64,000 nt of DNA from a virus. Of this stretch, positions 1,348-60,485 are shown in pieces. Location of the stretch: IMG/VR virus record IMGVR_UViG_3300017917_000321, positions 25,087 to 89,086 of that record; one strand, 5' to 3'. The position numbers and the translations under genes are program-made. Under the pieces are notes generated by a model. It was not told where the DNA came from. It ran no database searches and was given only the letters and a program-made list of their open reading frames with translations. The number at the start of each line of letters is the position of its first letter. Positions within the stretch are counted from its first letter, which is position 1.

Positions 1348-2264
1348 GCAAGATTAAAGTTGTTGACTATGACATCATATACCTTAGCTATGATGAACCT
1401 AATGCAGAAAAAAATTACGCAGACCTCTGTAAAAAGATTCCGTGGGCTAAACGTGTACACGGTGTTAAAGGCAGTGATGCTGCACACAAAGCCTGCGCTA
1501 GGCTAAGTGAAACTGATAGATTTATTACTGTTGACGGTGATAATACTGTCAGAGAAGAATTTTTAAATCAAGAAATTGATTTTAAAGAGCATCATGATCT
1601 TACTAATTGTGTGATTAGTTGGAGCGGCAGAAATGTTATCAACGGACTAATGTACGGTAATGGCGGATTGAAATGTTGGCCAAAAGAATTTGTGTTAAAC
1701 ATGAAAACGCATGAAGCAGCAGATCCCAAAAACAAACATGCTCAGGTAGATTTTTGTTGGGATGTGCAGTATATACAAATGAACAGTTGCTATTCAGATG
1801 TACACAACAATGCTAATCCTGCACAGGCATGGAGAGCAGGATTCCGCGAAGGTGTTAAGCTAGCTCTTGATAGAGGAATTAAACCCACAAAAGAAGAGTT
1901 TTTAAAAAACCATTGGCGTTGTTTGCATTGGCTCTATATATGGACTATGGTAGGCGCCGATGTTGAGTACGGCAAATGGGCAATACTAGGAGCCAGAGAA
2001 GGTCTTTTTAAAACAATGCTTACTGACTGGGATTATGTTAACGTTCGCGATTTCGAATATCTAAACGATTTATGGTCAAAAGAATTTGAAGGCATGGACG
2101 AAGATGTAATGGATGCTAGAATTAAATTCCTTGGCCGAGAACTCAGCGAAAATCTAAATGTTCCTATAGGTGAAATACTCTCACCAGATCAAAGTAAGTT
2201 TTTTAAAACAGTATACGAGCATCCTGCTAGAACAGATCATCAGAGATTTATTGAACGGCTATGA
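1344..2264 (+). CDS. GT-A-like glycosyltransferase (putative)
   Basis: A 306-residue protein. Near residue 10 it has the motif YLSYDEPNAEKN, then KRVHGVKGSDAAHKA, then FITVDGDN at about residues 60-67. This is the usual arrangement of a nucleotide-diphosphosugar GT-A fold with a DxD-type metal motif (DGD). A shorter paralogue at 15045 has ISYNEPNAESN, KRIDGVKG and VVDADA at matching positions, which supports the motif reading. A Cys/Trp-rich C-terminal half is unique to this copy. ATGA overlaps couple it to the genes before and after. Donor and acceptor are unknown; a sugar transferase acting on the phage-directed glycan pathway is inference. Confidence 0.55.
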   Translation: MSKIKVVDYDIIYLSYDEPNAEKNYADLCKKIPWAKRVHGVKGSDAAHKACARLSETDRFITVDGDNTVREEFLNQEIDFKEHHDLTNCVISWSGRNVINGLMYGNGGLKCWPKEFVLNMKTHEAADPKNKHAQVDFCWDVQYIQMNSCYSDVHNNANPAQAWRAGFREGVKLALDRGIKPTKEEFLKNHWRCLHWLYIWTMVGADVEYGKWAILGAREGLFKTMLTDWDYVNVRDFEYLNDLWSKEFEGMDEDVMDARIKFLGRELSENLNVPIGEILSPDQSKFFKTVYEHPARTDHQRFIERL

Positions 2265-3499
2265 AAAAGCAGGATAAGTTGCGCACACTATTATATCTTG
2301 AATATGAGCCTGATCAAATTTTTTATATAAACGGGTTTAAAAAAGATTTAATAATAAATTTTTTAACAGACGGCTGGGAACCGACCGGCTTATATGCGCT
2401 ATGGTCTGACTTTGATCAAATTTTTAAAAAAACTACTGCAATACCTGAATCTGAAAAATTCTTTTATCCAATAGCTATTAGTCGATGGGAAGTTTCTGAA
2501 ATTTTTAATCAGATAACAATCAGTAAAAAGATAATTAAAAAGGTCAAGCAAGGCCAGTGCAAAATTCTACTTATATGTCCCTTTGAAGGTTGGACATGGT
2601 CTTGGTGGGATAACCTAGCCTTCATTTTAAAGACAAAATTTGAACTTGACAATGAGCATATTGTTTTTCTTTCAGCTAACTATTTCCCACACAAAACTTT
2701 TAAAACAATAGTTTTTAATACCTGGGAAAAGCAAATATTTTCTAATTATTCAACATACGAGCATTACGAAAGAAGTGTAAAAGCAATAGAGACACCTAGA
2801 TCAAATAAATTCATATGTTTAAATAGGCGTCCTTCAATTCATAGATACGCAGTTGTTTCGAGTTTATTTGATAATAGAGATCAGGGAATTTTAACCTGCG
2901 CCTTAAAAGGAAGTTATAGTGACTGGTATCAAAATTGGGTAGAAGAAAATTTCTTAAATGAGTATCCGGAACTTTCAGACAAATACAAGAAAGAAATTAA
3001 ACCCAGTCTTCCTTTGACATATAATGATAATATTAATCCAGAAGTCGATAACCCTGCTGCTAACGAATGGGGTAATGTAGAAAAATATTATTCAAGCTAT
3101 CTTTATATTGTTACTGAGACTTTCTTTGAAAATAAAGCACAGGGTCAGGATACTCTATTTCTAAGCGAAAAGATTTTTAAACCTATAATATTTTTTCAGC
3201 CATTTGTAGCATTTGCAAGACCTGGCACTCTTAGATTAATGCAAGATCTAGGTTATAAAACATTCGGTGAGTTTATTGACGAGACTTACGATTTGATTGA
3301 CGACGATAAAGAAAGATTGTATAAAGCAGTTGATAGTGTTAAAAAGTTTATCAGTCTATCAAATGAAGAATTAAGAAATACAATGATTAAAATGGCACCA
3401 ATTTTTAATCATAATTATAATGTCCTAAAACAGAATTGGGAATACAAGATTTATGACAAACTTAAAAACGATTTATATAGCTGTTTGCACGGAGAATAA
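2261..3499 (+). CDS. Glycosyltransferase-like protein (GT-B C-lobe motif)
   Basis: A 412-residue protein. The C-terminal third carries ETFF...FLSEKIFKPI, then QPFVAFARPGTLRLMQDLGYKTF, then DETYD. This (S/T)EKxFKP...PFV...GTLxxLxxLG pattern resembles the nucleotide-sugar-binding lobe of GT-B enzymes such as GT10 fucosyltransferases. The N-terminal half is aromatic-rich and not recognised. A distant paralogue at 13231 keeps the same C-terminal order (LTEKTLNSVYGASFPILL, GSLQFLRNMG, DHSYD). Overlaps its upstream neighbour by 4 bases; the next gene follows after 3 bases. A glycosyltransferase role is inferred from this motif and the sugar-gene context. Confidence 0.45.
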   Translation: MKKQDKLRTLLYLEYEPDQIFYINGFKKDLIINFLTDGWEPTGLYALWSDFDQIFKKTTAIPESEKFFYPIAISRWEVSEIFNQITISKKIIKKVKQGQCKILLICPFEGWTWSWWDNLAFILKTKFELDNEHIVFLSANYFPHKTFKTIVFNTWEKQIFSNYSTYEHYERSVKAIETPRSNKFICLNRRPSIHRYAVVSSLFDNRDQGILTCALKGSYSDWYQNWVEENFLNEYPELSDKYKKEIKPSLPLTYNDNINPEVDNPAANEWGNVEKYYSSYLYIVTETFFENKAQGQDTLFLSEKIFKPIIFFQPFVAFARPGTLRLMQDLGYKTFGEFIDETYDLIDDDKERLYKAVDSVKKFISLSNEELRNTMIKMAPIFNHNYNVLKQNWEYKIYDKLKNDLYSCLHGE

Positions 3500-3502
3500 T
3501 TA

Positions 3503-4771
3503 ATGTCTCATCTTTTTGAAAAACTTAGAAACTCAAAAACATTCTGTATCATGCCATGGATTCACTGTGCAACACAGACTAATGGTGCTGTGCAGTTATG
3601 CTGTGTGGCTTCTCCTATTAAAGAATTAAATCTAAACAATATGACATGGGATGAAGTATGGAACAGTGAACAGTATAAAGATGCAAGATTAAAAATGCTA
3701 TCAGACGAAAAGGTTTCTTATTGTACGAATTGTTATAAGGAAGAAGCAGCAGGAATTAAAAGCCATAGACAGAATGAAAACGAAGTCTGGGCAAATAATT
3801 GGAGTCCTATTAAATTACATGAGTTAAGGAAAATTGTTGCTGACACAAACGATGACGGTTCTATTGATAGCGGTATTGTTAGTGTTGACTTTAGACTAGG
3901 AAATACCTGTAATTTACAGTGTGTAATGTGCAGGCCTCATGACAGCAGCAAATGGTTAAATGATTCAAAATTCCTTGCTGAAAATCTAACAAGCGAAGCT
4001 AAATGGGACTGGAAACACAAAAGTAACATTGTTATAGAACAATTTGAATGGTATAAGAATCAAAAATTTTGGGATAGCTTTTATGAATCTGCGCATAATA
4101 TTAGAGATCTAATATTCGGCGGCGGAGAACCTATACTCATCAAACAGCATAAAGAACTTATCAAACATCTTGTTAAGATCGATCATGCTAAAAATGTTGA
4201 AATTCGTTATCATACTAACGGAACAATGTTGGATGAAGAATTGTTGGAACTATGGACACACTTTAAGAAAGCTCATATCATGGTGAGCCTAGATGCTCAT
4301 CAAGACCTAAACAGTTACATTCGTTATCCTGCCAAGTGGGAAGATATAGAAAAGCATCTAAGAATCTATGATAATACAACTGGCGGTGATATTATACTAG
4401 ATATCAATTGTACTGTACAGGCTCTTAATGTAAATTATCTGCCAGAGTTTGCAGAATGGATCTGGGCCCAAGATTATAAGAAGATTGGTAAGAGAACACT
4501 GTCATCTCCGTTCCATACAGCAACACTGCACTGGCCAAAGTATCTATGCACCAAGGTTTTGCCACTAGAATCAAAAAAACGTGTGGCTGAAAAGTTAAAC
4601 ACATTCATGGCTAAGCATCCTAATAATCCAGAGATACAAAAATGGTCTGCAATCGTAGATTTTATGATGAGTGAAGACTGGTCTGACATGCTGGATCAAA
4701 CAAAAGACTATCTCAGAATGCTGGATAAAATTAGACCTGTGCAATTTCCTGAAATATACAAACTGTTATAA
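3503..4771 (+). CDS. N-twitch radical SAM enzyme 1
   Basis: A 422-residue radical SAM protein with an N-terminal twitch/SPASM-like cysteine domain ahead of the catalytic barrel. Visible ligands are C15 (CIMPWIH), C33-C34 after a Gly turn, and C74/C77 (CTNC). The [4Fe-4S]-SAM motif is C136-x3-C140-x2-C143 and GGGEP follows near residue 208. YIRYPAKW lies near residue 275, and related YIR-x-x-x-x-W motifs occur in all five paralogues here. Such enzymes make 5'-deoxyadenosyl radicals to modify peptides, sugars or small molecules; the twitch cluster often binds substrate. GGAG lies 8 bases before the ATG. Substrate unknown. Confidence 0.9.
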   Translation: MSHLFEKLRNSKTFCIMPWIHCATQTNGAVQLCCVASPIKELNLNNMTWDEVWNSEQYKDARLKMLSDEKVSYCTNCYKEEAAGIKSHRQNENEVWANNWSPIKLHELRKIVADTNDDGSIDSGIVSVDFRLGNTCNLQCVMCRPHDSSKWLNDSKFLAENLTSEAKWDWKHKSNIVIEQFEWYKNQKFWDSFYESAHNIRDLIFGGGEPILIKQHKELIKHLVKIDHAKNVEIRYHTNGTMLDEELLELWTHFKKAHIMVSLDAHQDLNSYIRYPAKWEDIEKHLRIYDNTTGGDIILDINCTVQALNVNYLPEFAEWIWAQDYKKIGKRTLSSPFHTATLHWPKYLCTKVLPLESKKRVAEKLNTFMAKHPNNPEIQKWSAIVDFMMSEDWSDMLDQTKDYLRMLDKIRPVQFPEIYKLL

Positions 4772-37026: not shown

Positions 37027-38262
37027 TTATCCTAGTACAACCCAAGCTGTACCATTGTAACCTTTAAATTCGTTAGTTGTGCTATCAAAGACAATCCAAC
37101 CTGCTTCCGGACTTGATGGCAAACTACCTGTTGCGTATCCAGTTGCTTTAAATACTGGAGCAGTAAATACACCGGCTGTGCTAAATGTTGCCTTCTTAAA
37201 TGCTGCTGGATTTGGTCCATTTGGCATAGTTAGTTCCATAAGTGACTGAGGTGCAGTTGATACACCGTCACTTGGAGTTACTAGTTTAACATTGATAAGA
37301 CCTAGTGTAGCAGATATAGTTCCTACTGGGGTAAGTGCTAGACCGTTGAATCTTATATTACCTGCACTATCTCCTGAATCAAGAGCAACAGTACTAACTG
37401 TGCTGCTTGAAATAGCATTTAATACTAAGTGAGGACCATTTTGTCCGTTACTAGAAGAATCAATTCTAATGCCAGGATCTGTATAAGGATTGACACATAC
37501 TAGTGCTGGACCAACCGGTCCACCTATACCATTAATTTCGACACTACCTAATGAACTAGTAATAGTATCATTAACAATTGAAATTACTCCATTGGAAAGA
37601 ATTCTATTAGTTCCGTCAACTAAAATAGTACTATCTTCACCTGCTACAGAACCTTTAAATGTTCCGTAGTGCTCGTCATTATTGCCATTGACTAAAAGTC
37701 TGCCATGTATTGACGAAATATTACCTGTTACATTGCCTGTTACATTGCCTGTTACATTGCCTGTTACATTACCAGTTACATTACCAGTTAAGTTGCCAGT
37801 GACATTGCCACTAACATCACCAGTTACATTACCAGTTAGATCTCCAAAGAAATCTGCATACATGCGTTGATTATAACTGTCAACAAGTATAGCAACACCG
37901 TCTGGTGTCCTAACTGATCCTAAAAATACTCTGGTATCACTATTTAGAACAGGATCACCGACAGAGTCTTCAAGATCTATATAATAGCTGCCGCCGGGTG
38001 TTGTTGGTGATGATTCTGGCGAAGCAATCCAGTCAGTACCGTCATAACGTAGAACATCACCTTCTTGCGGTGTAAGTGTTAGATCAACATCGGAAAGATC
38101 GTCTAGTCCGTACACAGCTCCTGTGTTAACTAGTATTCCGCCTATAGTAGTACCGTCACCAATCCATAAACGTTTGGTATCAGTTGTGTAGATAAGCTCG
38201 CCTTCAGCAGGCGTTATCAGCTGGCGCTGTGTATCTGTTCCGCGTCTAAGACGTAATGCCAT
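37027..38262 (-). CDS. Tail fibre protein with MTD-like N-terminus and GNVT repeats
   Basis: ATG 38262 is chosen because GGGAG lies 8 bases ahead; the in-frame TTG at 38277 overlaps that site. The 411-residue protein starts with LRRGTDTQRQLITPAEGELIYTTDTKRLWIGDG, a pattern typical of the N-terminus of phage tail fibres and major tropism determinants. A tract of eleven 4-residue repeats (GNVT and variants) lies near residues 138-181. The C-terminus has the GWIVFDSTTNEFKGYNGTAWVVLG ending seen in receptor-binding fibres. A T4-late-like box lies upstream and a strong terminator downstream. Confidence 0.85.
   Translation of the reverse strand: MALRLRRGTDTQRQLITPAEGELIYTTDTKRLWIGDGTTIGGILVNTGAVYGLDDLSDVDLTLTPQEGDVLRYDGTDWIASPESSPTTPGGSYYIDLEDSVGDPVLNSDTRVFLGSVRTPDGVAILVDSYNQRMYADFFGDLTGNVTGDVSGNVTGNLTGNVTGNVTGNVTGNVTGNVTGNISSIHGRLLVNGNNDEHYGTFKGSVAGEDSTILVDGTNRILSNGVISIVNDTITSSLGSVEINGIGGPVGPALVCVNPYTDPGIRIDSSSNGQNGPHLVLNAISSSTVSTVALDSGDSAGNIRFNGLALTPVGTISATLGLINVKLVTPSDGVSTAPQSLMELTMPNGPNPAAFKKATFSTAGVFTAPVFKATGYATGSLPSSPEAGWIVFDSTTNEFKGYNGTAWVVLG
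37719..37850 (-). repeat. 12-bp tandem repeat encoding (GNVT)n
   Basis: About eleven copies of a 12-base unit (plus-strand form GTTACATTGCCT and variants). The first four or five copies on the plus strand are nearly identical and the others degenerate, which points to recent expansion by slippage. It encodes GNVT/GDVS/GNLT in the fibre shaft. Confidence 0.9.
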
Positions 38263-52576: not shown

Positions 52577-52779
52577 AAGTCTAAGGTTCTTAGTTTGGTT
52601 TCGTATAAATTGATTTCGTCTTTAAGCCAAAGTTTCTTGGTTTTTAGCCTAGTAACTTTTGCATCAGGAGCATACTTACTATACAACAGATCTATTTCGT
52701 CGTCAAGCTCTCTATGCTTTTTGTACAGCTCTTGTAGGTGTGCCACAAGTTTATCGTGGTCTTCTTCAAAGTTGCTCAT
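52573..52779 (-). CDS. DUF465/YdcH-like small protein
   Basis: 68 residues from ATG 52779, with GGAG 7 bases ahead. HDKLVAHLQELYKKHRELDDEIDLLYSKY and RLKTKKLWLKDEINLYETKL match the DUF465 (YdcH) pattern of two antiparallel helices (LKxxKLxLKDEI). Function unknown; a small helical hairpin that may bind a partner protein. It overlaps the dpdA C-terminus by 14 bases in another frame. Confidence 0.7.
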   Translation of the reverse strand: MSNFEEDHDKLVAHLQELYKKHRELDDEIDLLYSKYAPDAKVTRLKTKKLWLKDEINLYETKLRTLDL

Positions 52780-54298
52780 CCTCCAACTCCTCCAATTTTG
52801 TTTCATCAAGATTGTCTTCAGTGTCTTCTTCTACAGTTTCTTCAACTTCAAAAAGAGAACCAAAGAAAGTACTGGCATTTACAGTCTTTTTACCAACTGC
52901 ACCTCTAGTACCAGGAATAGCCATATAGAAACGACTATGTTCATCAACTAATTTTAATGCTTTATCACGATCGTCAGTTGCAAAGATTTCTTCAACGATA
53001 TCTTTAAAGAACACCCTGTCAAACTTTTCTTGGACAAGCATGTTTGGAACAACGCCTGCGTCATACTGCCTATTTGCTTCTTGTACAGCGTTAATATGAC
53101 TCCACACGTTATGCCCCATCTGAATAGCGTAACTAAATGAATCCCAAGAAGTTTTACCTTCCTTACCAATCTTATTTAGGTCGCCTGGCGCATATACACA
53201 AACATCTGAAACCTTTAGTTGTTCAGTGATTGGACTATCTTCAAAGTTTTTAAAGATGCCATCTTGTAGTACAGCATCACGGAATAGTCGTTGATCACTT
53301 GCGTACTTCTTATTGTCCACTGATGGTACCATGCGATAAGTCCACTTTGAACGATCTGCTGTTTCATTTTGAATATAGATCTGTCCATTAGCAGTTGCTA
53401 AGAATGGACTAGCACAATCAAACGTAACCATGAACTGTTCATTGTGATGTTTACGCACAGCACGTTGGATGTCTGTTAGCAAACAAGCCCATTCTAGTTT
53501 ACTTGTGCCCAGGAAGTGCATACAGTCCTGTACACCCTTTTCCAACAAGCCGTCATAGCGCAGTGCAATGATACGCTTTAATACTAGATGAACATCGCAC
53601 ATGTTCTGACCACCCATGGCCCATCCGTTAAAATGAACACCTGGATATTGTTTAGGATCAGAATACTTTTTCATACGCTGATACCAATCTTCGGCGTCTG
53701 CGTGATTTTCACCCTGTAGTACGTTTAAGAACTTACAGTTGCCGTTGCGATTGTTAATAAACCAATCGTTGTTGATATAAGTGCCTTGAACTGCTTCTGT
53801 ATAAGAAGTAATGCCTGTTGCCTTTTGTCCTGCAGGTGAACGAGCAACCCACGCAGGAATATCAAGGATCATTCCATAGTCCATGTAAGCATCCATCCAC
53901 GTGAGCACTTGTTCACGTTTCTTTTGTGCCTTGGGACAGTTAGGATCTTTCCAATCACCTTCCCAAACGCCTTTACCGATCTGGAAGCCGCCTGAGTCGC
54001 CTAATATCCAACTGGTATTCCTATTACGATTACGTACCATATCTTCTTTAGGACTAAACTTGTTAACATCGAGTTCTGCATGTCCTGCAGAATACAAAGT
54101 CCAATGATAGTTGAAAAGTCCCTTTCTTGGATCTAAGTAATTAAGGCTTTCAACTCCATTAGTAAAGTTTGAAGGAATACGAGCAGGATCTACATAATTG
54201 TCATATCTCTGCTTGCCCACATAAGTGGCATAGAACCCACTCAGTGCAGGCAAGAAGTGCGCATAATCGCTTTGTGTTGCTGTTAAATCTCGATTCAT
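52766..54298 (-). CDS. dpdA: DpdA-like DNA 7-deazaguanine transglycosylase
   Basis: A 510-residue protein related to tRNA-guanine transglycosylases. GDSGGFQIGKG (residues 100-110) is the TGT DSGGFQ motif; NVLQGENHADAEDWY matches VQGG; GWAMGGQ is the GxxxGG loop; VTFDCASPF has D294 at the nucleophile position (TGT MFDCV). Length and the acidic C-terminus separate it from tRNA TGTs. DpdA exchanges guanine in DNA for a deazaguanine base, so it is the last step of the FolE/QueD/QueE set. It starts one base after the membrane-protein gene (TAATG). Confidence 0.82.
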   Translation of the reverse strand: MNRDLTATQSDYAHFLPALSGFYATYVGKQRYDNYVDPARIPSNFTNGVESLNYLDPRKGLFNYHWTLYSAGHAELDVNKFSPKEDMVRNRNRNTSWILGDSGGFQIGKGVWEGDWKDPNCPKAQKKREQVLTWMDAYMDYGMILDIPAWVARSPAGQKATGITSYTEAVQGTYINNDWFINNRNGNCKFLNVLQGENHADAEDWYQRMKKYSDPKQYPGVHFNGWAMGGQNMCDVHLVLKRIIALRYDGLLEKGVQDCMHFLGTSKLEWACLLTDIQRAVRKHHNEQFMVTFDCASPFLATANGQIYIQNETADRSKWTYRMVPSVDNKKYASDQRLFRDAVLQDGIFKNFEDSPITEQLKVSDVCVYAPGDLNKIGKEGKTSWDSFSYAIQMGHNVWSHINAVQEANRQYDAGVVPNMLVQEKFDRVFFKDIVEEIFATDDRDKALKLVDEHSRFYMAIPGTRGAVGKKTVNASTFFGSLFEVEETVEEDTEDNLDETKLEELEDEQL

Positions 54299-57439: not shown

Positions 57440-60130
57440 TTATTCTCCAAAGTCAAATAAACTTGAGAAGGTGTTGTGCTGTTTTGTGTCTTCTAAACTA
57501 TAGTTTAGAACACCGATCAAGTTATCTAACTTATTGTCAATAATTGTTTCTTCCATAGCACTGTCATCGAATGGAAGATCTTTAAACCACTCAGGCAATC
57601 TTAGTTCATCAACTGGATAAGCTACCGATGTATAGCCTAACGGATTGTCCTTGAGTTTGCAAACAATAACTTTCATACCATCAACAATCTCCATTGAGTA
57701 TCTGTCACCGTTCATTCTCTTTAAAGAATTCCAGTTGATACTAGCACGGACATGTCCGGGCATGTTTGCTTTGCCCTTCTTCTGCTCTTCTTTTTGATAG
57801 AAGCCAATCTTGTTAGCTCTCTTAGGCGAACCCTTCTCCCAGCCTGGACGCTCTTTGAATTCCTGTCTAAACTGTGTGATACGTTCAATAACTTCTTTTT
57901 CTTCCTTGCCTGTAAGTACCATCAGAAGGACTTCACTCAAAAACTCCTGCATAAACACAGGGGTATCTGAACGACGCAGATCTAAGCCCATAGCTTTTAC
58001 TTTGCCTGGCTTGCCGCCTTCGTCCTTGCGCACACCTTCCTGATCATATACTAGAGCTGCATAGCGTTTCTTTGTAATGTAAAGTCCGCTCTCAGCAACG
58101 ATTTCTCTACCAGCCGCAATAACTTCTGAACGACTCTTAGGACAATGAAATGCTTTGCCCATAAAATCTGGGAACGTTTTATTAGCCTCTTCGCAGACTT
58201 GATCGTAAAGTGTTACGATTGTTTCCTTTGTCCACGGTATACGTCCTGCATCAATATCTTCTTTAAGTGTTGTGTAGGCACTAAAGTACACAGAGTCAGT
58301 ATCACCGTAGATAACTGATTTACCTATGTGATCATACTCACCTGTAATAATCTCGTTTACCTTACCAGCCATGTGCTTGGCAATTTGTCTTCCAGTAAGT
58401 GTGGTAGACTGACCAATGCGCTTGTCAAAGAAACGGCAACCAGGGTTGAGAATAGCACCATACAAACTATTAAGATTAATCTTTTTAACAAGCTGACGTT
58501 TGTCCCAAAAAGCAATTTCTGTATCATTACCGGCCTCCTGAGCCTTTTTCTTCATAGCCTGGAGTTCTTTACGTTCGGCATACCAACGCTTGAGTAGTCC
58601 AGGAATAACACCTTCGTATTCTGTTGTAAATATAGTTCCGTTAGCACTGAGCATCCAAGGCATGTGACTGTCAAAGATTAATTTGAATATTTCAGCACCA
58701 CTGAGCACATCGCTGCGTCCATCTTCCCAATCAACTGTAATAGCAACATCTTTGCGCCGATCCATTACTGCTTCGTATTCTTCAGATCCAAATCTACCTT
58801 CCCATGAACCCGCAAAGCTCATCTTCTTAAGATTAGTATCTTCGTGAACTCGCGCATCGGTGATAGTTGGACGTAACTGTCCTACAATAGTTTCTGGCGC
58901 CATATTCAGCGCACGAATCACGCTAGGATATAGACTGTTTAAGTCCATTGACGCAATCCACTTGTGTAAACCTACTTTAGGATATGCAACATACGCACCT
59001 GCTGCCTGTGTGTTCTCGTCATCCTGTTTAGGGCGATTAGGTACCTGTAGTCCTCTGTTGTGTGCTTCGTTAATAATAGCCTGCTCAGTAACAGCTACAG
59101 CACCCATAGTTGTTTGTAGTAGAACTGTATTAGCATGTGCTAGTTCATTTGATAAGTCAATAAACTTCAGTTTCTTATCTAGTTTGTCTAACAGCGCAAC
59201 GTCCTGTCTGTTGTATTCAATAAACGTTCTAAAGTCATTGTTGTACAACTGATCTAGTGTACCTTCATACACTGTCTTGTTTTCGCCAATTTCCATTTCA
59301 CCAATAGCATCTAATCGATAGCTGTGGCGTTCTTCATATGTATACTTGCGATAAAGTTCAAGACTGTCTAGGTGTACACGACCTACAAAGTCATATGTTT
59401 CAGCAGCCTTGCCATACTTTTCGTATTCACGCTTCTTGGGCAATTGACCCCATAAACAGAATCTACGAGTGTCATCTTTGCTGAGAATACGTGCTACACG
59501 ATTTACAGTATAAGGAACGTCATATCCTTCTGAGTTCCAACCGCTTACAATGTCAGCATCTTCAATTAAGTCAAGAAACGTCTTGAGCATTTCTCGCTCA
59601 CCATTTCCGTCCTTGTCATTTTCAAATAGGATAACATTGTCACCCCATTCACTACACATTTCCTTAGCCTGTTCCATAGTCAGTCCTTTGGGAGGAACTG
59701 CTAGTGTGATCAGTGCATTGAGCCACTGTAAGCATACAGTGATAGCAGTAATGGGCATAAATGGATCTGACGGATCGGCGAACCCTCGCTCAGGATCAAA
59801 GTCCGTCTCAATATCCCAGAATGCAATGTTTAGTTTTGGTGCATCCTGATTGAGATAGTTTTCACTGAGACATTGGAATATAGGATTGATATCGCTTTCG
59901 TACAACTTCTTACTGTTGTTGATAGCTAGTTCTTTGCGGAAGTCTTTTGTATTCTTACAAACAATACGACTTAACTGAGTGCCATAAACACTCTTGTACT
60001 TGCCCTTGGGGTCTTCATAGTAAAAGGTATATTTTACCGGGTGTTCTGTAAAGCGTCTCTTTCCATCTTTACGCTCTACGATTCTGATAATGTCAGAATC
60101 TCTGTCAAAAATTGCATCTACGTAACTCAA
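57440..60130 (-). CDS. 43: Family B DNA polymerase (T4 gp43-like)
   Basis: An 896-residue replicative polymerase. Exonuclease motifs are FWDIETDF (near residue 105), SGWNSEGYDVPY and YNRQDVALL; polymerase motifs are DLNSLYPSVI (A, near 395), KKINLNSLYGA (B, near 550) and YGDTDSVYF (C, near 610). It is an uninterrupted single frame, with no intron or split. The start is TTG at 60130: GGAG lies 6 bases ahead and the sequence downstream (YVDAIFDRD) fits the N-terminus. A hairpin abuts the GGAG. It works with the gp45-like clamp and RNase H. Confidence 0.95.
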   Translation of the reverse strand: MSYVDAIFDRDSDIIRIVERKDGKRRFTEHPVKYTFYYEDPKGKYKSVYGTQLSRIVCKNTKDFRKELAINNSKKLYESDINPIFQCLSENYLNQDAPKLNIAFWDIETDFDPERGFADPSDPFMPITAITVCLQWLNALITLAVPPKGLTMEQAKEMCSEWGDNVILFENDKDGNGEREMLKTFLDLIEDADIVSGWNSEGYDVPYTVNRVARILSKDDTRRFCLWGQLPKKREYEKYGKAAETYDFVGRVHLDSLELYRKYTYEERHSYRLDAIGEMEIGENKTVYEGTLDQLYNNDFRTFIEYNRQDVALLDKLDKKLKFIDLSNELAHANTVLLQTTMGAVAVTEQAIINEAHNRGLQVPNRPKQDDENTQAAGAYVAYPKVGLHKWIASMDLNSLYPSVIRALNMAPETIVGQLRPTITDARVHEDTNLKKMSFAGSWEGRFGSEEYEAVMDRRKDVAITVDWEDGRSDVLSGAEIFKLIFDSHMPWMLSANGTIFTTEYEGVIPGLLKRWYAERKELQAMKKKAQEAGNDTEIAFWDKRQLVKKINLNSLYGAILNPGCRFFDKRIGQSTTLTGRQIAKHMAGKVNEIITGEYDHIGKSVIYGDTDSVYFSAYTTLKEDIDAGRIPWTKETIVTLYDQVCEEANKTFPDFMGKAFHCPKSRSEVIAAGREIVAESGLYITKKRYAALVYDQEGVRKDEGGKPGKVKAMGLDLRRSDTPVFMQEFLSEVLLMVLTGKEEKEVIERITQFRQEFKERPGWEKGSPKRANKIGFYQKEEQKKGKANMPGHVRASINWNSLKRMNGDRYSMEIVDGMKVIVCKLKDNPLGYTSVAYPVDELRLPEWFKDLPFDDSAMEETIIDNKLDNLIGVLNYSLEDTKQHNTFSSLFDFGE

Positions 60131-60135
60131 ATCTG

Positions 60136-60158
60136 TCTCCCGTTGCTTGTGGCCAACG
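60136..60158 (-). promoter_or_regulatory. Hairpin operator candidate at the polymerase RBS
   Basis: In the minus-strand mRNA, CGTTG and CAACG form a 5-bp stem with an 8-base loop (GCCACAAG) at 60158-60141, directly followed by the GGAG Shine-Dalgarno. This is the layout of the T4 gp43 autogenous translational operator. An outer 7-bp repeat (TGCCGTG/CACGGCA) lies just upstream. Confidence 0.6.
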
Positions 60159-60224
60159 CTGCCGTGCTACATGCTCGTAAAGTGAGCGACTCTATACTAA
60201 TGCCGCTGTTACACGGCACTAATA

Positions 60225-60485
60225 TTACTTATCATAGCCAAGTGTTGAAACTAGTGTTTCTAGATCTTCGAAGCTATCAGCATACTTTTCCCAGTCACGC
60301 TTTTGGGCAATCTTAATTGCCTTGTTAATCAGTGCTGGCTTAACATCTAGTTCTTCTGCTACTGCCTTTACAGTTTCCTTGAGACCTTCTTGTAGGTCTT
60401 CAATCTCCTGAAGCACAGTAATGCCTTCTCTTACTAGACGCTCTAGCTTTGCCTTTTCTTCTGCACCATAGGTACGATCGCTCAT
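60225..60485 (-). CDS. dsbA: DsbA-like late-transcription accessory protein
   Basis: An 86-residue helical protein. The N-terminal helix (AEEKAKLERLVREGITVLQEIEDLQEGLKETVKAVAEEL) and the following DVKPALINKAIKIAQKRDWEKYADSFEDLETL segment align with T4 DsbA, a double-stranded DNA-binding protein linked to late promoters. GGAGG precedes the ATG. A perfect TATAAT lies upstream with a 17-base spacer to TTGCTC. Assignment rests on pattern and length (T4 protein is 89 residues). Confidence 0.75.
   Translation of the reverse strand: MSDRTYGAEEKAKLERLVREGITVLQEIEDLQEGLKETVKAVAEELDVKPALINKAIKIAQKRDWEKYADSFEDLETLVSTLGYDK

What the first reader, a model, noticed from the sequence alone, without database searches (positions are those of the whole stretch)
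60131..60224. Structured polymerase leader resembling the T4 gp43 operator
The polymerase mRNA leader has a 5-bp stem with an 8-base loop abutting GGAG, preceded by a 7-bp outer repeat (TGCCGTG/CACGGCA) with an inner GCTC/GAGC. In T4, gp43 represses its own translation by binding a hairpin of this size (the eight-base loop used in early SELEX work). The loop sequence differs from T4, as expected if operator and protein evolve together. The TTG start would further limit expression.
Basis: partly seen in the sequence, partly recalled or inferred. Interest (0 to 1): 0.65.

Follow-up and report, generated by a model that had tools for sequence, protein, structure and literature searches.

The report
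Pseudoknot leader of phage DNA polymerase
The mRNA of this giant phage's DNA polymerase starts with a small folded RNA, a hairpin plus a pseudoknot touching the ribosome-binding site, that many uncultured relatives keep by matched base changes and only in front of this gene, so it is probably the switch by which the phage sets how much polymerase it makes.

Summary
The 5-bp stem with an 8-base loop against GGAG is present on the minus strand (60158-60141), but single-sequence folding does not support it. Comparison does. Loci found by polymerase similarity, and loci found by two DNA-pattern scans that ignored the polymerase, share one leader: hairpin P1, a linker, and an H-type pseudoknot. In the pseudoknot the first three loop bases pair with the linker. 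The pairs are GGU/GGC:GCC, AGU/AGC:GCU, AGU:ACU and GGU:ACC, with matched changes in different branches. The Shine-Dalgarno lies mostly 0-5 nt from the pseudoknot, or inside it. A P1-only scan put 116 of 117 hits in front of this polymerase. Covariance models find one strong copy per genome. Where another ORF sits between leader and polymerase, the junctions examined overlap or abut (translational coupling). No Rfam family matches.

Best reading: an autogenous translational operator bound by free polymerase. It works like the T4 gp43 operator, but is not shown to be homologous to it: different loop sequence, a pseudoknot, an extra hairpin. The RNA structure and its restriction to polB are well supported. 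Polymerase binding is inferred (about 0.6). A metabolite, another protein or an mRNA-stability role remain open.

The parts
57440..60130 (-). T4-type family B DNA polymerase gene, TTG start at 60130
   Evidence: Pfam PF00136/PF03104, PHROG 262 E=2e-202; 28% identical to T4 gp43
60131..60224 (-). polymerase mRNA leader (intergenic between upstream stop and polymerase start)
60135..60190 (-). conserved RNA element: P1 hairpin + linker + pseudoknot + SD
   Evidence: covariance model R1 match 65.9 bits, E=1.9e-21; next window match E=2.7
60173..60187 (-). P1 hairpin GCTC[ACTTTAC]GAGC
   Evidence: 3 of 4 pairs change on both sides among relatives; closing G-C, flanking C and A invariant or nearly so
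60161..60163 (-). S1 5' strand of the pseudoknot (GGC, linker)
   Evidence: complementary to loop 5' end; GG[TC] with GCC 64/65, AG[TC] with GCT 43/43
60154..60158 (-). S2 5' strand (CGTTG)
   Evidence: pairs covary GC/AU/UA/CG
60151..60153 (-). S1 3' strand (GCC, first three bases of the 8-base loop)
60146..60150 (-). L3 (ACAAG), family consensus ANAAR
60141..60145 (-). S2 3' strand (CAACG)
60137..60140 (-). Shine-Dalgarno GGAG directly 3' of the pseudoknot
   Evidence: in relatives SD begins mostly 0-5 nt after S2, in about 17 of 124 inside its last bases
60195..60224 (-). additional 12-bp hairpin (P0) next to the upstream stop codon; found only in the window's closest relatives
   Evidence: pairing kept in L003/L004 despite substitutions
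60225..60485 (-). upstream gene, DsbA-like small transcription regulator; the upstream gene differs between loci while the leader stays
   Evidence: PHROG 12534/639; leader comparison

Best explanation
The leader is a cis-acting RNA operator of the polymerase gene. A 5' hairpin (P1) and an H-type pseudoknot (S1 3 bp, sometimes 4-5; S2 3-6 bp; A-rich third loop ANAAR) abut or include the Shine-Dalgarno. When the pseudoknot is held folded by its ligand, the 30S subunit cannot bind, and the polymerase, or any ORF placed between leader and polymerase and translationally coupled to it, is not translated. The most likely ligand is the polymerase itself when not engaged on DNA, giving autogenous feedback as for T4 gp43. 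Shown here: the structure, its pseudoknot, its position, its restriction to polB, one strong copy per genome, coupling of the ORFs in between. Inferred: polymerase as ligand, repression as the sign, translation as the step.
For: Covariation of P1 and S2. Unforced test of S1: the partner is found in 112 of 124 leaders versus a shuffled mean of 64 and maximum of 80. S1 G-C/A-U swaps at least 3 times on the polymerase tree, with sisters L346 (AGU:GCU) and L352 (GGU:GCC). GGU:ACC in L472 beside GGC:GCC in L401. Leader-first DNA scans land on polB: 143/152 directly with 7 of the other 9 shown to be leader-ORF-pol; P1-only scan 116/117. One strong copy per record in contigs up to 374 kb. The upstream gene varies while the leader stays. 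In the 13 leader-ORF-pol cases examined, the ORF's end overlaps or abuts the polymerase ATG (plus ORF-length arithmetic). T4 precedent of polymerase autoregulation by a leader hairpin (PMC3014915).
Against: No binding or expression data. The leader is absent in many related polymerase genes, so control by it is dispensable, and the T4 review notes that some T4-related gp43 proteins do not autoregulate (PMC3014915). No match was found upstream of the polymerase in the four cultured relatives examined (43-46% identity). Conserved unpaired bases and a compact pseudoknot are also typical of small riboswitches.
Confidence: 0.6

Rival explanations
1. The pseudoknot is a small-molecule riboswitch (for example a nucleotide or deazapurine sensor) that sets polymerase synthesis by hiding or freeing the SD.
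For: H-type pseudoknots with A-rich third loops next to an SD are the build of preQ1-I, SAM-II and similar riboswitches (own knowledge); invariant unpaired A's in L3.
Against: No Rfam riboswitch matches at E<=1; apart from coupled ORFs it controls only polB, whereas riboswitches usually precede metabolic or transport genes; one strong copy per genome.
Confidence: 0.12
2. The fold is a constitutive 5' UTR element: it protects the 5' end or aids ribosome loading, without a ligand.
For: In many loci a sigma70-type -10 element ends 7-12 nt before P1, so the hairpin would stand at the mRNA 5' end; related polymerases without it have a -10 element 5-8 nt before the ATG, that is, predicted leaderless mRNAs.
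Against: A stabiliser would not need an invariant L3 and a pseudoknot, would not be expected to stay with one gene, and the pseudoknot overlaps the SD rather than freeing it.
Confidence: 0.15
3. Another phage or host RNA-binding protein (RegA-like or other) is the ligand.
For: T4 RegA represses many early mRNAs including replication genes (PMC3014915).
Against: A trans regulator usually has several targets; here there is one strong copy per genome, always at the polymerase. RegA sites are unstructured (PMC3014915).
Confidence: 0.09
4. The leader is a direct homologue of the T4 gp43 hairpin operator.
For: Same gene, same place, stem-loop of 5 bp and 8 bases.
Against: Loop sequence differs, pseudoknot and P1 are absent in the described T4 operator, polymerases 28% identical (PMC3014915).
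Confidence: 0.03
5. Chance inverted repeats, no functional RNA.
For: Single-sequence folding is unremarkable.
Against: All comparative tests.
Confidence: 0.01

Closest known systems
Phage T4/RB69 gene 43 translational operator
   Same: Leader of a T4-type DNA polymerase gene; short stem with an 8-base loop just 5' of the SD; probable autogenous translational control
   Different: Loop GCCANAAR instead of AAUAACUC; loop pairs with the linker as a pseudoknot; extra covarying P1 hairpin; SD adjoins or lies in the stem instead of about 7 nt away; polymerase 28% identical; binding not shown
Phage T4/RB69 gene 32 pseudoknot operator
   Same: Pseudoknot 5' of the ribosome-binding site of a replication gene, autogenous regulation
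   Different: There it nucleates cooperative gp32 binding over more than 40 nt of UUAAA-rich RNA (PMC535899); here the start codon is about 10-15 nt from the pseudoknot, without such repeats, and the gene is polB
Pseudoknot riboswitches (preQ1-I, SAM-II)
   Same: Compact H-type pseudoknot with A-rich loop controlling the SD (own knowledge)
   Different: No Rfam match; gene is a DNA polymerase, not a metabolic gene; ligand unknown

Membership tests
T4 gp43 translational operator | lies in the leader of a T4-type family B DNA polymerase gene | tested here: met
T4 gp43 translational operator | stem of 4-5 bp closed by an 8-base loop | tested here: met
   window 5 bp/8 nt; T4 compared; relatives range 3-6 bp and 7-9 nt
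T4 gp43 translational operator | loop bases UAAC (T4, RB69) or UAAA (RB49) | tested here: not met
   loop GCCANAAR in nearly all GCC-type leaders; T4 loop read; PMC3014915
T4 gp43 translational operator | simple hairpin, no pseudoknot | tested here: not met
   S1 pairing covaries
T4 gp43 translational operator | bound by its own polymerase, which represses translation | not testable with these tools
   needs binding and repression assays
T4 gene 32 pseudoknot operator | pseudoknot 5' of the RBS | tested here: met
T4 gene 32 pseudoknot operator | more than 40 nt of UUAAA/UAAA repeats between pseudoknot and start; ssb gene | tested here: not met
   SD mostly 0-5 nt after S2, start 3-11 nt after SD, gene is polB; PMC535899
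Rfam-described RNA families, riboswitches included | match to a covariance model of Rfam 15 | tested here: not met
   no match with E<=1 in the window or in five relatives' loci
autogenous regulation in general | single target site in the genome, at the regulator's own gene | tested here: met
   one strong model match per record, at polB; some records lack it; records are mostly fragments; the weak second hits were not followed up

The most novel reading that the evidence does not exclude
A new class of riboswitch-like pseudoknot that senses a replication-related metabolite (nucleotide or modified base) and directly sets the level of a viral replicative DNA polymerase.
Probability: 0.12. Interest if true: 0.85.

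Novelty: new variant of a known kind. Interest (0 to 1): 0.62.

Why it matters
Autogenous control of a DNA polymerase by its own mRNA is a textbook case (T4 gp43, the first SELEX target) known from a few closely related phages. A covarying pseudoknot operator seen in hundreds of environmental phage loci would show that polymerase leader control is widespread, that it is built on a different RNA fold, and that it can be lost as a unit in favour of leaderless mRNAs. It gives a large natural data set of matched RNA and polymerase sequences for protein-RNA co-evolution, and an RNA family missing from Rfam.

Tried and rejected
Single-sequence folding of leader and core: no significant structure; the first fold was on the wrong strand. 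Rfam with relaxed thresholds on the window and five relatives: nothing. The outer 7-bp repeat as a structural element: not conserved. TTG start as part of the control: most relatives use ATG. Search for the element in cultured relatives Atu_ph07, Phosso, Vibrio 2.275.O and Escherichia phage 121Q: no match upstream of the polymerase. A degenerate whole-element DNA pattern failed because its spacing was wrong and was replaced by the P1-only pattern. A DNA-level explanation (palindromic protein sites or promoter) was rejected because pairing is kept through G-U changes and through the non-palindromic S1. Literature searches for a described polymerase leader pseudoknot in phages found none in the held library; the T4/RB69 operator paper PMC137073 and PMC5737381 were not held.

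Full report
What was checked. The finding lies on the minus strand. The polymerase gene is 57440-60130, family B of the T4 type, 28% identical to T4 gp43 and 46% to its nearest sequenced phage relative, the Agrobacterium jumbo phage Atu_ph07. A contig with 96% identical polymerase is 357 kb long, so this is a jumbo T4-type phage. The leader is 60224-60131. The stem CGTTG/CAACG, the 8-base loop GCCACAAG and GGAG are there as stated. Folding the window's sequence alone gives no support.

Relatives. Eighty IMG/VR loci with polymerases 77-100% identical show a conserved leader although the gene upstream differs. Two further polymerase-based collections extend it to polymerases about 57% identical in the N-terminal part. 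The shared anatomy is P1 (G-N-N-C...G-N-N-C, with C before and A after nearly invariant), a linker of 10-16 nt beginning A-N-G, and an H-type pseudoknot touching or overlapping the Shine-Dalgarno.

Covariation of the stems. On 55 leaders the nine pairs of P1 and S2 form standard pairs in 90.1% of cells against 69.6% in shuffles, covariation 0.629 against 0.254 (0 of 500 shuffles), and at most 0.13 when slid by 1-3 columns. In 32 leaders of the second type all 13 pairs, pseudoknot included, are kept, with 8 pairs changed on both sides; these rows were chosen by their loop letters. S2 occurs as GUUG/CAAC, GUGG/CCAC, GCGA/UCGC, CCG/CGG, CCA/UGG, GUGUAA/UUACAC and others.

The pseudoknot. The first three loop bases pair with a linker triplet: GGU:GCC, GGC:GCC, AGU:GCU, AGC:GCU, AGU:ACU, GGU:ACC. 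In a parse that does not ask for this pairing, GCC loops go with GG[TC] in 64 of 65 and GCU loops with AG[TC] in 43 of 43. The complementary triplet is found in 112 of 124 leaders against a shuffled mean of 63.6 (maximum 80 of 5000); other loop offsets give 54, 16, 16, 11 and 4. On the polymerase tree the G-C/A-U swap needs at least three changes, two forced by well supported branches, and sister lineages L346 and L352 show both forms. L472 (GGU:ACC) and L401 (GGC:GCC) sit in the same arrangement before a similar small ORF. Some leaders that looked unpaired at S1 have an extended S1 (AUGGC:GCCAU) that outcompeted the short S2 in the parse. The 24- and 32-row alignments were chosen with the loop or pairing in view, so their 100% figures for S1 are not independent; one search is the test.

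Specificity. A DNA scan for S2 plus SD, blind to the polymerase, gave 152 places: 143 directly before this polymerase. Of the other nine, seven were shown to be leader, one ORF, polymerase; one ends with its contig and one was not examined. A scan for P1 alone, blind to S2 and polymerase, gave 117 places: 100 directly before polB, 16 with an ORF between, 1 chance hit without the rest of the element. Covariance models R1 and R2 find one strong match per record in contigs up to 374 kb, weak second hits (up to 21.7 bits) apart, and none in some records whose polymerase has no leader.

Operon logic. The ORFs between leader and polymerase include 2OG-Fe(II) oxygenase-like proteins, a tryptophan halogenase-like protein, a weakly sulfotransferase-like protein and small Cys-rich ORFs. 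In the thirteen cases looked at, the polymerase ATG overlaps or abuts the end of the ORF, so translation is probably coupled and the leader governs both (two of the overlaps were derived from ORF lengths). In a good part of the leader-bearing loci a sigma70-type promoter puts the transcript start just before P1. Related polymerases without leader often have a -10 element 5-8 nt before the ATG, predicting leaderless mRNAs. The leader thus behaves as a whole 5' UTR that is present or absent as a unit.

Interpretation. A single-copy, polymerase-only, SD-occluding pseudoknot is best explained as an autogenous translational operator, by analogy with T4 gp43 (PMC3014915). The binding partner is inferred. 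[quoted passage not shown] The gene 32 pseudoknot operator (PMC535899) is the other precedent, with a different layout. No Rfam family matches.

Limits. Relatedness inflates shuffle-based statistics. The promoters are consensus matches. Most records are fragments. No binding, probing or expression data exist. The held literature lacks the primary T4/RB69 operator papers.

Noticed in passing
L208, L209, L290-L292, L302, L304, L305 and others, start codon region: Related polymerase genes without the leader carry a -10 element (TATAAT-like, often with a -35) ending 5-8 nt before the ATG, predicting leaderless mRNAs.
   Followed up: partly
L390:1899-2760 (also L427, L483): An opposite-strand DUF723 ORF (homing-endonuclease-like) sits between the leader with the first polymerase codons and a re-started polymerase ATG; that polymerase also seems to hold an intein at its GDTDS motif.
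   Followed up: partly
L080:1318-1471, L297, L315, L324, L333, L441, L472: A small ORF (about 50 aa; Cys-rich where its sequence was read, L080) repeatedly lies between leader and polymerase, in the cases examined overlapping or abutting the polymerase start.
   Followed up: partly
L013:1498-1560: Two tandem pseudoknot-like modules (GGU + stem + GCC loop) with a consensus sigma70 promoter before a 2OG oxygenase-like ORF that abuts polB; P1 is missing.
   Followed up: partly
window 60195-60224: A 12-bp hairpin next to the upstream stop codon, seen only in the window's nearest relatives, kept in L003 despite substitutions.
   Followed up: partly
window 52766-54298 (-): 510-aa ORF with a very weak match to tRNA-guanine transglycosylase (E=0.078); could be a DpdA-like DNA-modification enzyme.
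   Followed up: no
window 37720-37838: Tandem array of a 12-bp unit (about 10 copies, 48-bp higher-order unit).
   Followed up: no
L200 (Atu_ph07) 1501-4470: The nearest sequenced polymerase is annotated as two ORFs (split polymerase).
   Followed up: no
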